Shown here: positions 20,871 to 26,509 of the stretch, in pieces
Position numbering within the stretch: position 1 is the first letter of the stretch
How the letters are laid out: each line of letters starts with the position of its first letter
From: a virus
Length of the DNA stretch: 37,347 bases
Direction: 5' to 3' (one strand)
IMG/VR virus record: IMGVR_UViG_3300020583_000025
Coordinates: 1 to 37,347 of that record
The notes under the pieces: generated by a model
What the model was told of the DNA's origin: nothing
Databases searched by the model: none
Seen by the model: only the letters and a program-made list of their open reading frames with translations
Made by a program: the position numbers and the translations under genes

Positions 20871-20960
20871 AATCACCACTCTAGTGAACTCAAATAAGAA
20901 CAAAACCAGACTGGTGAGTTTCCAGCTTTTCGCGTTGCAATCGCTAGGTTTTGAATTTGT

Positions 20961-21629: not shown

Positions 21630-22021
21630 GCCTTAAGCCTGAACAAATTGACCATATCAACTTAGTGAACTGGTTTCATTATAACTTTCCAGAATTGGCT
21701 GCTGACTTCCATCACTTTGCTAATGAGCGTAAATGTAGCGAATATGAAGGTAAAAAATTAAAAAAAATGGGTGTTAAAAAAGGGGTTGCTGATTTTTTTT
21801 TGGCTTTACCTGTTCAAAATGATGATGGGGTTTGGTGGGCTGGATTATGGATTGAATTAAAAGTTGGAAAGGGAAAACTTACCATAGAACAATCTGCATT
21901 TATCCATCGTAAATTACAACGTGGTTATGAAGCGGTTGCGGTCTGGGGTGAGGATGCTGCGAAAGCGGTTATTTTGACTTATTTAAACAGGGGCGTTAAT
22001 GATGAGCGAAGCAAGTTATGA
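21626..22021 (+). CDS. VRR-NUC domain nuclease
   Basis: The 131-residue protein matches stand-alone phage VRR-NUC proteins, a PD-(D/E)xK nuclease family that includes structure-specific junction nucleases. Visible active-site elements are GVADFFLA (Asp56), the GLWIELKVGKGKLT motif (Glu77 and Lys79) and Gln89 in the helix after it. It may process branched DNA before packaging or in replication. It is coupled to lysozyme by a 4-base overlap and its end overlaps the next start. Confidence 0.87.
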   Translation: MSLKPEQIDHINLVNWFHYNFPELAADFHHFANERKCSEYEGKKLKKMGVKKGVADFFLALPVQNDDGVWWAGLWIELKVGKGKLTIEQSAFIHRKLQRGYEAVAVWGEDAAKAVILTYLNRGVNDERSKL

Positions 22022-22550
22022 GTTTGACCCATGCAGTATAGATGGAAGTGACCAGGAAGAGCCGGTAACATTGGATAACTGGAAACCAAGCAGCAAGCAA
22101 CCAAAAATAGTTGCATCCAAATGGCGACAAGAACAAATAGACGGTAACTATAATCAGCAACCAGGATTGGACGAACTTAACAAAATACACATGTACCTTA
22201 AGAAAAAAGCCTCCGATTCCGATATTATGAAAGCATTTGGGATTAATGCCGAAACCTTAGTTGCCATTAAAAAAGATAAATATGATCCCGTTGATGGAAT
22301 ATCACTTGATAATCAAAGTAAGATTTACAAGGAATTTAAGCGCCTTGAAGATAGAATAGACAGCCTATTAAGAGGGATTGATTATATAGCTGAATGCATG
22401 TTTAGCAGCAAGAAAGATAAGGCAGCTTATAAAAAATCATTTAAAAAACCTAAGAAAGTTTCACCTGGTAAAAAGCCAAAAGTCGAGAAAAATGAGGAAT
22501 CTGAGGAAATTTCTAAGCAAAGTGACAATTTTGGCGGTGAAGAAGAATAG
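21999..22550 (+). CDS. Unknown 183-residue protein with basic tail
   Basis: The N-terminal ~55 residues are polar and acidic. Residues about 57-90 may form a small helix-turn-helix-like unit (IHMYLKKKASDSDIMKAFGI). Residues about 100-130 form a coiled coil. The last 45 are Lys-rich with an acidic end. It overlaps the VRR-NUC gene by 23 bases. ATG at 22002 is equally possible. Helix-turn-helix followed by coiled coil might indicate DNA binding or a small-terminase-like regulator, but I do not recognise the family. Confidence 0.65.
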   Translation: MMSEASYEFDPCSIDGSDQEEPVTLDNWKPSSKQPKIVASKWRQEQIDGNYNQQPGLDELNKIHMYLKKKASDSDIMKAFGINAETLVAIKKDKYDPVDGISLDNQSKIYKEFKRLEDRIDSLLRGIDYIAECMFSSKKDKAAYKKSFKKPKKVSPGKKPKVEKNEESEEISKQSDNFGGEEE

Positions 22551-22579
22551 AATCTGATCCCTCCATGAAGGAAACAGTT

Positions 22580-22610
22580 AAGGGGTTCGTTATGCGACCC
22601 CTTCTTTATT
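22580..22610 (+). terminator. Rho-independent terminator after the lysis/nuclease genes
   Basis: AAGGGGTTCG (22580-22589) pairs with CGACCCCTT (22595-22603), leaving one bulged T and a TTATG loop, followed by CTTTATTT. It separates the lysis and nuclease transcript from the partition module that starts with the repeats below. Confidence 0.85.
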
Positions 22611-23516: not shown

Positions 23517-23543
23517 AGAAATCTTGATATAAAGACATATTAG

Positions 23544-23567
23544 GTCTGATTATAAGCAAAATCAGAC
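23544..23567. terminator. Hairpin between convergent genes
   Basis: GTCTGATT (23544-23551) and AATCAGAC (23560-23567) form a perfect 8-bp stem with an 8-base loop exactly between the RHH gene and the convergent small gene. There is no clear T-tract in either direction, so it is at best a weak bidirectional terminator. Confidence 0.45.
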
Positions 23568-23801
23568 TTAGTAAGGGTATGGCTCATGATTAAAATTAGA
23601 CTTGCATTTTATACAATGAAGCCAAGGACGACTACCTCCAGGATGCCATTCATGCTCACAATAGTTTTCAATCATGGTTTGGAGTTTCACCACTAATTCA
23701 CTTCGTCTTATAGCATTTGTTTCCGACATGGGGATATTTTTTAATTGAAGTGCAATCGCATTGTGCAAGCACTCTAGCTCTTGTTTCGTAAATTCATTCA
23801 T
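23568..23801 (-). CDS. Small putative zinc-binding protein, unknown
   Basis: The 77-residue protein is helical (NEFTKQELECLHNAIALQL) and ends in a likely zinc site: CEHEWHPGG and HCIKC, plus a later His. The ATG at 23801 has GGAG 7 bases upstream; the upstream in-frame ATGs at 23825 and 23822 have no good site. Proteins with this layout are frequent in phage early regions and have no assigned role. It may be the last gene of the leftward operon, beyond the structured non-coding region. Confidence 0.7.
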   Translation of the reverse strand: MNEFTKQELECLHNAIALQLKNIPMSETNAIRRSELVVKLQTMIENYCEHEWHPGGSRPWLHCIKCKSNFNHEPYPY

Positions 23802-23825
23802 TGGTGGCTCCAAGAGGGTCATCAT

Positions 23826-24307
23826 TGATGATCATATGCGCAAGACGCTGCCGGAGCCATAATTGGTGAGCCGGACGACTTATATAACCGCATGTGGCTG
23901 GCCGTATCACAGCCCTTTGGACTCATGCCGACTTAAGTCATAGCTATATAAGCCCCGTAGCCCATAATTGGCGAATGGGGGGATTTACACCCCTACAGCC
24001 TTTTACCGGCACAATCTCATAGCCTCACCATACCTGAGCGAGTTTACGCTTTCATGGGTTTGCCGTTCTCGCATTGCTGCTTGAAAGGGCGGCTTACCGA
24101 TTCGCCTCACGAATAAAAATAACTAGGATTCCCCAATCATTCCATCCGATAAGCCATAAATGGAGACAGCTAGTCGGGAGTTGCACCCGAACTCGTAGGA
24201 TGACGGTTAAATGCCGACTCTACTTAACCTAAACTCTAGGACTGCCATAACATTGCTGGGAACGCCTTAACGAACCCGTGTACTGTTTCACCGTCATGGG
24301 TGATCAG
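23826..24307 (-). ncRNA. Candidate structured RNA or degenerate tRNA-like array
   Basis: No ORF of note occupies these 482 bases. Inverted repeats fill it. A nested rod uses 23879-23886/23945-23952, 23890-23894/23924-23928 and 23896-23900/23910-23914. GGCGAAT (23970-23976) pairs with ATTCGCC (24100-24106). GGCTTATCGG and TCGGTAAGCC (24146-24155 and 24091-24100, read on minus) pair over 10 bp with two G-U pairs that work only in minus-strand RNA. Two 7-base-loop hairpins resemble tRNA T-arms (TGCAACT at 24174-24190, TGTAAAT at 23979-23993). Three places read TCNCCA then WTTATGG on the minus strand. I could not fold a normal cloverleaf. Confidence 0.5.
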
Positions 24308-24631
24308 CTAATTAGCCATAAATTCATTACCATACTTCCTAATTGCTTGCTTGGACATGCATTCCTTATACAAAAATAACTTGCTAGAAGGATGCGTGGT
24401 TGGGTCTTTAGCGTCATATTTCCATAAAGCAGGGGGCAAAGTCAACCCGCATTTCTCCATATAGTCTGAACATTCCAATAAAATACACGTAATATGAGCT
24501 ATATAACCCGCTAATGTCTCTTTATCTAGATTAATAACCCTGGTTTTTTTATCCTGATAGGAGGCAATATGCTTACCAATAATATCAGCTTGCTTCCTGT
24601 ACTTATGCCAAACGCTTAAATGAAAGTTCAT
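24308..24631 (-). CDS. Unknown helical protein after the helicase
   Basis: The 107-residue protein is helical throughout, with four Cys residues spread without finger spacing. ATG overlaps the helicase stop (ATGA), so it is translationally coupled. It ends just before the structured non-coding region. Nothing in it suggests a function to me; its coupling suggests an accessory replication or recombination role. Confidence 0.65.
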   Translation of the reverse strand: MNFHLSVWHKYRKQADIIGKHIASYQDKKTRVINLDKETLAGYIAHITCILLECSDYMEKCGLTLPPALWKYDAKDPTTHPSSKLFLYKECMSKQAIRKYGNEFMAN

Positions 24632-26352
24632 AACGATCCCTGTGTTGGTTGAAAAATTTTCCTTTTTATCCTATACCCATTATCATCTTGATGAAGCATT
24701 ATGTGCGTAGGAGTGTTCACACTTTGAAGCATCTCTTGCATTTTCTCGCGCTTATCGAGATGGATATACCAATCACTTGGCTTCTCGCAGTGTTTTTTAA
24801 CGAACTGTCCATAGAAGACATGGCGTGCCTTGTCACTTATGGGCGTATAGTTCTCATAAAATGCTGCAATGCGACCTTTGTCATCCCGACATCGGTACAT
24901 GCAATTTATTCTAAATCCTGTTTTAGAGTCAGATATTGCGTATTTTGCATCAATAACCTCAAGTTCTTTTAATTCTGGTGTTGCTGAGGGTAACGTTAAT
25001 TTATCATTGGGGTCTATCAGTTCATGCTGGCAAGCTCTGCAATGGCGACTTGCGAGGTCGTTCTTAACCCCGCATTCTTGGTTTGGACACTCCTTAAACT
25101 CAAAGAAATATTCGCAGCGTTTATCATTGATGACTCCAACGCAACGTCTAGCGGTTTCTTTGTTTAATTCCATACAAGCAGGGCATTTAATAACGAGCGG
25201 CCTATCCTCATCTAAAGCCATTTTAACGGCCTTTAACAAGACAGGATTATCCCAATGGCTATGACGCTCTATGTTTCCTGCAAAGTCTAAAACTAAGGCT
25301 TCGGTTTTGTCGGTATGGGGTGATAATCGTAGGACTCTTCCCATTGTTTGTACGAGGAGCACAAGGCTTTCAGTGGGGCGAAGATAAGCCAACGTGTCGA
25401 AGGCAGGTACGTCAACACCAACGCTAATAATAGCAATGTTAACCAAGTATTTAATAAGTCCAGTACGCGCATTTTCTAATATCCTCGTTCGTTCATCTTG
25501 TGGCGTTTCACCTAATATTAAAGCACTTTGCTCTGGGGGCAAATGACCCATTATCTCTTCGGCGTGTTTTTTGGTTGTTGCAAAGATAAAAACCCCATAT
25601 CTGGACTGAGTTTCCATGATATGAATGATTTGCTTACAGATAAGCTCTGTTAAACGAGCATTCTCACTAATTACCAGATCAAGGTCTTTGGAATCAAATT
25701 TTCCATTGCTTTTAATTTTAACCTTGGAAAAATCAATAACAAGATTCGGGTCTATTTTAAAATCAGGGTCGATTAAATATTTGTCATTGATTAATTGTTC
25801 AGTGGTGATGTTTCCGACTTGTCGTTTGAAGAGACAATTATTTCCAACGATTTCTGTTCCTTTAAATCTAAAGTTGGTTCCCGTTGCGCCGAGCAATCGC
25901 ATTTGGGGGTATTCTTGCTTGTAGTGGCGAAGTATGCGCATAAAGACGCTACGATCATCCATATAATTAATCGCATGAGCTTCATCGACAATAATGATAT
26001 TAAACTTGATTTGGGCGATTCGTTCATTTTTATTAATTCCGTTTAAAATTGATTGTGGCGTACCAAAAATAACTGATGCGCTTTCGTCTTTCTCTCCCAG
26101 AGCAGCACAATAAATCGAAGCCTCACCGCCTTGTTCTTTAAATGTAGCACAGTTATTTCGAACGAGTTCAGCATTATTTACTAAGCATAAAGCACGTTTC
26201 GCAAGTCTTTGCATTCTTAAGAGTATATCGGCAAGCATGAGGCTTTTACCCGCTCCAACACTTGCCATTAATAGAACCGGTTCATCGGTTTCTTTAAGTA
26301 CGTTCCAGCATTCCTGTACTGCTTTCTTTTGGTATATCCGCAATTCTTTCAT
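24628..26352 (-). CDS. Superfamily II DNA/RNA helicase with zinc-ribbon tail
   Basis: The 574-residue protein has SF2 motifs in order: Q-motif-like start (LRIYQKKAV), Walker A SVGAGKS (31-37), DEAH (123-126), GATGT motif III (155-159), GETPQDER (281-288) and QTMGRVLR motif VI (335-342). Two Cys4 clusters follow (390, 393, 404, 413 and 422, 427, 438, 441). Phage helicases of this type unwind replication or recombination intermediates. The start at 26352 (AGGA 6 bases upstream) is preferred over the upstream ATG at 26403, which lies deep in the previous gene. It belongs to the leftward recE-recT operon. Confidence 0.88.
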   Translation of the reverse strand: MKELRIYQKKAVQECWNVLKETDEPVLLMASVGAGKSLMLADILLRMQRLAKRALCLVNNAELVRNNCATFKEQGGEASIYCAALGEKDESASVIFGTPQSILNGINKNERIAQIKFNIIIVDEAHAINYMDDRSVFMRILRHYKQEYPQMRLLGATGTNFRFKGTEIVGNNCLFKRQVGNITTEQLINDKYLIDPDFKIDPNLVIDFSKVKIKSNGKFDSKDLDLVISENARLTELICKQIIHIMETQSRYGVFIFATTKKHAEEIMGHLPPEQSALILGETPQDERTRILENARTGLIKYLVNIAIISVGVDVPAFDTLAYLRPTESLVLLVQTMGRVLRLSPHTDKTEALVLDFAGNIERHSHWDNPVLLKAVKMALDEDRPLVIKCPACMELNKETARRCVGVINDKRCEYFFEFKECPNQECGVKNDLASRHCRACQHELIDPNDKLTLPSATPELKELEVIDAKYAISDSKTGFRINCMYRCRDDKGRIAAFYENYTPISDKARHVFYGQFVKKHCEKPSDWYIHLDKREKMQEMLQSVNTPTHIMLHQDDNGYRIKRKIFQPTQGSL

Positions 26353-26509
26353 CTGACATCCTGTCATTAGAAGGTGCATAACAAAAAGTGGATTTTTTAT
26401 CATCCATTATTATATTTTTTCTTAAATGAGCTGCTAATTGCGGTGAAATTTTTTCTATTTCACGAATAACTTGCTCAATATTTTCTTTTACTTCATTAAA
26501 TTCATTCAT
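26294..26509 (-). CDS. Small helical protein, unknown
   Basis: The 71-residue product has a helical N-terminal half (VKENIEQVIREIEKISPQ, then LAAHLRKNI) and a polar tail. Its start overlaps the end of the DUF551-like gene and its end overlaps the helicase start by 59 bases in another frame. The tight packing favours a real gene. I see no diagnostic motif. Confidence 0.55.
   Translation of the reverse strand: MNEFNEVKENIEQVIREIEKISPQLAAHLRKNIIMDDKKSTFCYAPSNDRMSDERIADIPKESSTGMLERT

What the first reader, a model, noticed from the sequence alone, without database searches (positions are those of the whole stretch)
23826..24307. 480-bp gene-free block of nested stems and tRNA-sized repeats
The block has at least seven perfect or near-perfect stems, two hairpins with T-arm-like 7-base loops (TGYAAMT), and three places reading TCNCCA followed by WTTATGG on the minus strand. 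GCCATAA occurs five times on the plus strand (about 23856, 23960, 24152, 24244, 24314). G-U pairs in one 10-bp stem point to a minus-strand RNA. It could be an array of degenerate or unusual tRNAs, or a new structured phage RNA. It lies beside the partition module, so an origin or incompatibility region is another option.
Basis: seen in the sequence. Interest (0 to 1): 0.75.

Follow-up and report, generated by a model that had tools for sequence, protein, structure and literature searches.

The report
Array of tRNA-like small phage RNAs
Between two phage genes lies a tightly packed row of folded, tRNA-like RNA genes with tRNA-style CCA ends, most matching no catalogued RNA family and shuffled or swapped for true tRNA genes in related phages, which suggests that these phages make a whole set of tRNA mimics whose purpose is unknown.

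Summary
The block is real and is best read on the minus strand as about six discrete structured RNA units (A, T1, C5, C, T3, D) inside an early RecT/helicase operon of an uncultivated P22-like phage. It has the highest G+C in the window, no long ORF, and CCA-WTTAT-GG three times where shuffles give 0.003. Relatives carry the same units in other combinations. D, A and T1 covary well above shuffled and slid controls. T1 folds as a cloverleaf: 6-bp acceptor, T-arm (5 bp, loop UGCAACU, three compensated pairs) and encoded NCCA, but no valid anticodon loop; ARAGORN and Rfam call no tRNA. In a relative the T3 position holds a true tRNA-Tyr. A blind scan of 20 related phages plus the window found 15 acceptor+T-arm units against 0-2 in shuffles; several belong to a second undescribed tRNA-like type. 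Best explanation: precursor RNAs cut out by host RNase P and 3' tRNA processing, released as tRNA mimics, perhaps decoys or substitutes against tRNA-directed host factors. Processing and function are inferred; no transcript was seen. The origin/incompatibility idea is not supported. New variant of a known kind (phage tRNA clusters), with several RNA families absent from Rfam.

The parts
24255..24309 (-). Unit A: two-hairpin RNA element that begins at the stop codon of the upstream gene (TAGCTGAT...)
   Evidence: 9 relatives aligned; 5 of 15 pairs changed on both sides, 99.3% of cells paired, slid controls at most 1 double-changed pair; full-length match in 7 of 30 phage records
24161..24246 (-). 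Unit T1: tRNA-like cloverleaf (6-bp acceptor, 4-bp arm, middle arm, T-arm with loop UGCAACU, encoded NCCA)
   Evidence: 4 relatives; consensus four-way junction, three compensatory pairs in the T-arm; model R3 finds only these four copies among 18 loci at a strong score; T-arm 15/15 identical to the tymovirus tRNA-like consensus, but at only 13.2 bits
24156..24160 (-). Spacer WTTAT after CCA; the next unit starts GG
   Evidence: CCAWTTATGG three times in the block, 0.003 expected
24087..24155 (-). Unit C5: hairpin closed by a 9-bp stem GGCTTATCG/CGGTAAGCC, ending GCCC here and ACCA in L005
   Evidence: MFE z -3.2 in the window and -5.8 in L005; closing stem covaries between them (sequences)
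23969..24080 (-). Unit C: about 112 nt with a T-arm-like hairpin (loop UGUAAAU) and 3' end TTCGCCA
   Evidence: Conserved in L002 and L005; diverged relative in L158/L155 with T-arm GAGGG-UGCAAAU-CCCUC and TTCGCCA. Acceptor pairing weak
23864..23963 (-).
   Evidence: Found only in the window; MFE z -2.0. In L002 this position holds tRNA-Tyr(GTA)
23806..23858 (-). Unit D: outer stem plus two hairpins with conserved core GGCAGCGUCUUGCGCAUAUGAU...ACCCUCU, followed by ACCA (23805-23802) and the ATG (23801) of the next gene
   Evidence: 13 relatives; 8 of 18 pairs changed on both sides, 96.5% of cells paired, 0/500 shuffles; strong matches in 6 of 30 phage records
24308..24631 (-). Upstream gene (107 aa, no family), directly after the helicase gene 26403..24628
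23568..23801 (-). Downstream gene (small protein, likely start MNEFTK; D's GGAG may be its Shine-Dalgarno)
   Evidence: start site is inference

Best explanation
The block is a co-transcribed array of separate small structured RNAs on the minus strand of the early recombination/helicase operon. Shown by sequence: discrete units, most closed by their own ends, several with an encoded NCCA, packed with 5-nt WTTAT spacers, exchanged as modules between relatives and in places swapped for true tRNA genes. At least T1 is a tRNA-like cloverleaf with acceptor and T-arm but no usable anticodon. Inferred: host RNase P cuts at U^GG before each tRNA-like unit, and tRNA 3' enzymes trim to CCA, as they do for phage tRNA clusters. 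The released RNAs then act as tRNA mimics: most likely decoys or variant substrates that keep tRNA-directed host proteins (for example anticodon nucleases) off real tRNAs. A and D are separate cis or small-RNA elements in the same transcript. Array of structured, tRNA-like RNAs: about 0.75. tRNA-type processing: about 0.55. Decoy role: about 0.25.
For: Module sharing and shuffling among relatives. Covariation in D, A and T1 above slid controls. Cloverleaf consensus and three compensated T-arm pairs in T1. Motif statistics. Unit ends pair with themselves better than any reassignment, rank 1 of 40,320 (ends chosen by eye). True tRNA-Tyr in the array of L002 and of L032, tRNA-Asn and -Gln further along in L032's contig. 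A blind scan of 20 related phages plus the window: 15 acceptor + T-arm units against 0-2 per shuffle and 16 T-arm + NCCA against 0-2. A second tRNA-like type with 13 of 18 pairs double-changed. Literature: RNase P accepts non-tRNA substrates carrying 3' RCCA and the TYMV tRNA-like structure (PMC12710915), and reads the T-stem-loop and RCCA (PMC11143913). Phage tRNA-Tyr defeats retron-Eco7 (PMC11555353).
Against: No unit in the window is called as tRNA by ARAGORN or Rfam, even at E of 10. C5 and T3 are rods, C has a weak acceptor, and D usually lacks CCA outside the window. T1 rests on four sequences. T3 has no homologue. No promoter or transcript evidence. The decoy function has no direct evidence. 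Single-unit folding energies are mostly unremarkable.
Confidence: 0.55

Rival explanations
1. mRNA punctuation: the units are cleavage and stability signals between genes of a polycistronic mRNA (RNase P or other RNases cut there, ends are protected by the folds), and the excised RNAs themselves have no function.
For: Single tRNA-like units of the second type sit in gene junctions, for example at the very end of the helicase gene in L072/L161, between genes in L155, and after the terminase gene in L160. D occurs alone in many junctions. The window array lies between two co-directional genes.
Against: Arrays of up to six different units in one junction, true tRNAs in the same position, and strongly conserved internal cores (D, and the GACAGUGA loop of the second type) exceed what a cut site needs.
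Confidence: 0.2
2. Decaying tRNA genes: an old phage tRNA cluster now eroding, kept by chance.
For: True tRNA genes in relatives; a tRNA at 29 bits in L030; tRNA-like genes with damaged middles in L139 and L131.
Against: Compensatory changes in T1, D, A and the second type show selection on structure. Pseudogenes would not keep acceptor and T-arm intact while the sequence changes. The UGCAAYU T-loop is shared across units.
Confidence: 0.1
3. One or more ribozymes: D or A self-cleaves and matures the neighbouring tRNA, as HDV-like theta ribozymes do beside phage tRNAs.
For: D follows a tRNA or tRNA-like unit by a few nt in the window, L002 and L030; theta ribozymes sit with their cleavage site at tRNA 3' ends (PMC10879173).
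Against: D's 5' strand pairs with its own 3' end, not the nested double pseudoknot of HDV-like ribozymes. Rfam finds no ribozyme. D also occurs away from tRNAs.
Confidence: 0.08
4. Replication origin, incompatibility region or attachment site.
For: ParA-like gene nearby; repeated GCCATAA; tRNA-3'-end-like sequence could be an attP.
Against: Repeats are unevenly spaced unit boundaries. Units occur in other genes' junctions in relatives. Both halves of the acceptor are present, and stems covary. The T-loop UGCAACU differs from the usual TTCRANT of the tRNAs found here. No integrase was found among the proteins examined.
Confidence: 0.03

Closest known systems
tRNA clusters of T-even and T5-like phages, with their tRNA-like stable RNAs (Moen et al. 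1978, cited in PMC11143913; T4 RNA C and RNA D recalled from memory)
   Same: Phage-borne, tightly packed (spacers under about 10 nt), true tRNAs mixed with other small RNAs, expected to be cut by host RNase P
   Different: Here most units are not tRNAs, carry no anticodon, belong to sequence families absent from Rfam, and lie in small P22-like phages
Tymovirus tRNA-like structure (RF00233)
   Same: T-arm GGGUGCAACUCCC identical to the consensus in unit T1; CCA end; RNase P substrate by literature
   Different: Match is only the 15-nt hairpin at 13.2 bits (cut-off 40); T1's acceptor is an ordinary stem, not a pseudoknot, and it is not the 3' end of a genome
Theta ribozymes beside phage tRNAs (PMC10879173)
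   Same: Structured phage RNA element next to tRNA 3' ends (unit D)
   Different: No HDV-like topology or Rfam match; D also occurs alone
Phage tRNA-Tyr that defeats retron-Eco7 (PMC11555353)
   Same: tRNA-Tyr(GTA) is a tRNA found in two of these arrays
   Different: That one is a functional tRNA; in the window its position is filled by a rod-shaped RNA
GOLLD / ROOL
   Same: Large phage RNAs often near tRNAs (from memory)
   Different: Rfam search negative; units here are 53-112 nt

Membership tests
tRNA | Match to tRNA model (RF00005) or ARAGORN | tested here: not met
   No hit in the window block at E up to 10 and none in any strict ARAGORN mode; only loosened ARAGORN thresholds gave calls, not matching the units
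tRNA | Acceptor stem next to a 5-bp T-arm with 7-nt T-loop, NCCA end | tested here: met
   Unit T1 only, with three compensated T-arm pairs over four sequences; acceptor 6 bp and nearly invariant
tRNA | Anticodon loop with U33 and a usable anticodon | tested here: not met
   Middle arm of T1 has loop CAUUUAA in the window and UGAAAUU in L035; no U at position 33 (sequence)
tRNA | D-loop with GG that docks on the T-loop | tested here: inconclusive
   T1's GG is paired in the 4-bp arm; tertiary contact not testable
tmRNA | tmRNA call with tag reading frame | tested here: not met
   ARAGORN -m finds none at the normal threshold
Tymovirus tRNA-like structure (RF00233) | Score over the family cut-off | tested here: not met
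   13.2 bits against 40, E 8.1
HDV-like / theta ribozyme | Nested double pseudoknot and Rfam match | tested here: not met
   No Rfam match; D's covarying helices are nested hairpins
HDV-like / theta ribozyme | Self-cleavage | not testable with these tools
   needs an in vitro transcript
GOLLD / ROOL | Rfam match | tested here: not met
RNase P substrate | Cleavage at the unit 5' end | not testable with these tools
   Only the substrate features (U-1, G+1, T-arm, NCCA) were seen in sequence

The most novel reading that the evidence does not exclude
A clade of small phages carries a dispersed, modular repertoire of tRNA mimics: RNAs that keep the acceptor/T-arm half and CCA end of tRNA but have replaced the decoding half. 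They are matured by host tRNA enzymes and used as decoys or regulators against tRNA-directed defences or translation factors.
Probability: 0.25. Interest if true: 0.85.

Novelty: new variant of a known kind. Interest (0 to 1): 0.62.

Why it matters
Phage tRNA clusters are increasingly seen as counter-defence devices. An array in which most members look like tRNAs only at the part that RNase P, CCA enzymes and EF-Tu recognise would point to RNA mimicry as a phage strategy. It would also explain why such regions escape tRNA finders and Rfam. It supplies concrete, short, testable RNA families (T1, D, A and the GACAGUGA/UGCAAUU type).

Tried and rejected
Relaxed, intron and mitochondrial ARAGORN modes: only at loosened thresholds were there calls, on both strands and not matching the units. 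Rfam at permissive E for the window and relatives: nothing for the new units. DNA similarity to named phages and plasmids: none; host not identified, though the nearest named coat-protein relatives are mostly Vibrio and Shewanella phages at about 29% identity. Genome-collection scans for D and for the helicase: none, so no host prophage. An attachment-site reading was dropped because both acceptor halves are present. Hammerhead and group I intron readings of A and B were considered by eye and dropped for lack of the conserved cores. A phage antiterminator (HK022 put-like) reading of the two-hairpin unit A could not be tested; the paper search gave nothing. The C hairpin as a strict T-arm is doubtful because L005 pairs best with a 9-nt loop. 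Paper searches on phage tRNA-like RNA arrays found none describing this.

Full report
What the window is. It is a 37,347-base virus record with a P22-like portal and coat protein. On its minus strand, from 29,371 down to 23,568, runs an early operon with an exonuclease VIII-like gene, RecT, a helicase, a 107-aa gene, the block, and a small gene. A bidirectional terminator-like palindrome (about 23,542-23,568) follows, facing the parA operon on the plus strand.

Checking the observation. The block has no long open frame, the highest G+C in the window, several stems, both T-arm-like loops, and the three CCA-WTTAT-GG sites where shuffles give 0.003. The fifth GCCATAA is really GCCCATAA. Read on the minus strand, the repeated word is the boundary between units: a unit ends NCCA, five bases WTTAT follow, and the next unit starts GG.

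Relatives resolve the units. The helicase gene led to close relatives, and DNA patterns from single units to more. No block is shared whole; the units come and go. A is followed in the window by T1, C5, C, T3, D. L002 has A, B, E, C, true tRNA-Tyr, D. L005 has A, B, C5, C, D. L035 has A, B, T1. L008 has A, D. L007 has A plus another unit. L037 has another ACCA-ended unit, then T1. L039 has one UCCA-ended unit closed by nine pairs. L032 has A, another unit, an A-like hairpin and true tRNA-Tyr, with tRNA-Asn and tRNA-Gln further along its contig. The position of the window's T3 is thus taken by a true tRNA gene in L002.

Covariation. D: 13 sequences, 8 of 18 pairs changed on both sides, 96.5% of cells paired, at most 3 double-changed pairs when slid; most sequences were collected with an exact core pattern, so core conservation is biased, but the varying stems are not. 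A: 9 sequences, 5 of 15 pairs, 99.3% paired. T1: 4 sequences, RNAalifold gives a four-way junction in which the 3' arm has five pairs and loop UGCAACU, with three compensated pairs. The T1 T-arm equals the tymovirus tRNA-like consensus over 15 bases, too short to be significant. B, a further unit of relatives only, shows by eye compensated stems and a possible pseudoknot; it was not counted.

Unit ends. For eight units the 5' end pairs with its own 3' end better than under any reassignment of ends (rank 1 of 40,320). I had chosen the ends partly by eye, so this is supportive only. A blind test followed: 20 related phage records plus the window, 778,519 bases, were scanned for a 7-bp acceptor directly stacked on a 5-bp T-arm with a 7-nt T-loop. 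There were 15 hits against 1, 0, 2, 0 and 0 in five shuffles. T-arm plus NCCA gave 16 against 0-2, the window's T1 among them. Besides true tRNAs, the first scan revealed a second tRNA-like type: 8-bp acceptor, a hairpin with loop GACAGUGA, a variable middle, T-arm loop UGCAAUU and an NCC(A)-like tail, about 70-195 nt. In an alignment of its ends 13 of 18 pairs are changed on both sides (the middles were cut out and one linker base removed for alignment). Rfam does not know it. Some relatives also carry tRNA-like genes with ordinary T-loops but unusual middles.

What it is and how it may work. The units are RNA genes or RNA elements of one minus-strand transcript. RNase P reads the T-stem-loop, the stacked acceptor/T helix and the 3' RCCA (PMC11143913), and accepts non-tRNA substrates with RCCA and the TYMV tRNA-like structure (PMC12710915). 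T1 and the second type present these features and the array is spaced like a phage tRNA precursor, so excision by host tRNA enzymes is the simplest inference. What the products do is open. The swap with tRNA-Tyr and the known use of phage tRNA-Tyr against retron-Eco7 (PMC11555353) make a role around tRNA-directed host proteins the leading guess. mRNA punctuation is the main rival. D's outer stem holds the GGAG before the next gene's likely start, so a local translation role for D is possible in the window, though not in L002 or L008, where no gene follows it directly on that strand.

Limits. No transcripts, no host, four T1 sequences, no homologue of T3, and hand-chosen unit ends.

Noticed in passing
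window 20888-20954 (-): int-alpA RNA (RF02996, 42.5 bits) next to an endonuclease VII-like gene; the only Rfam match in the window at gathering score.
   Followed up: no
window 22554-22592 (+): An A-like two-hairpin element right after the stop codon of ORF 21999-22550, ahead of parA, conserved in L002; its second hairpin and T-rich tail look like a terminator. Model R2 does not reach it at E 0.01.
   Followed up: partly
L161 2431+, L160 12994+, 15333+ and 5988-, L155 16878+, L172 12372-, L150 2770-: Undescribed tRNA-like RNA type (8-bp acceptor, GACAGUGA hairpin, UGCAAUU T-arm) in gene junctions of related phages; the L161 copy starts at the very end of the helicase gene. L150 is a divergent member.
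   Followed up: partly
L002 6108-6260, also L005, L006, L030, L035, L036, L104: Unit B, about 150 nt, with compensated stems and a possible loop pseudoknot (ACGAUU/AAUCGU); no Rfam family.
   Followed up: partly
L139 3159-3227 and 3440-3519; L131 about 390-500: tRNA-like genes with ordinary TTCGAAT T-arms but missing or odd D and anticodon arms, in gene junctions, the L139 ones between terminase and portal genes.
   Followed up: no
L129 2382-2609: About 225-nt structured-looking stretch between tRNA-Asn and tRNA-Gln, partly alike to a stretch after the helicase in L043.
   Followed up: no
L002 6267-6539 (-) and 6395-6604 (-): ORFs that read antisense through tRNA-Tyr, of the kind often mis-annotated as proteins.
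   Followed up: no
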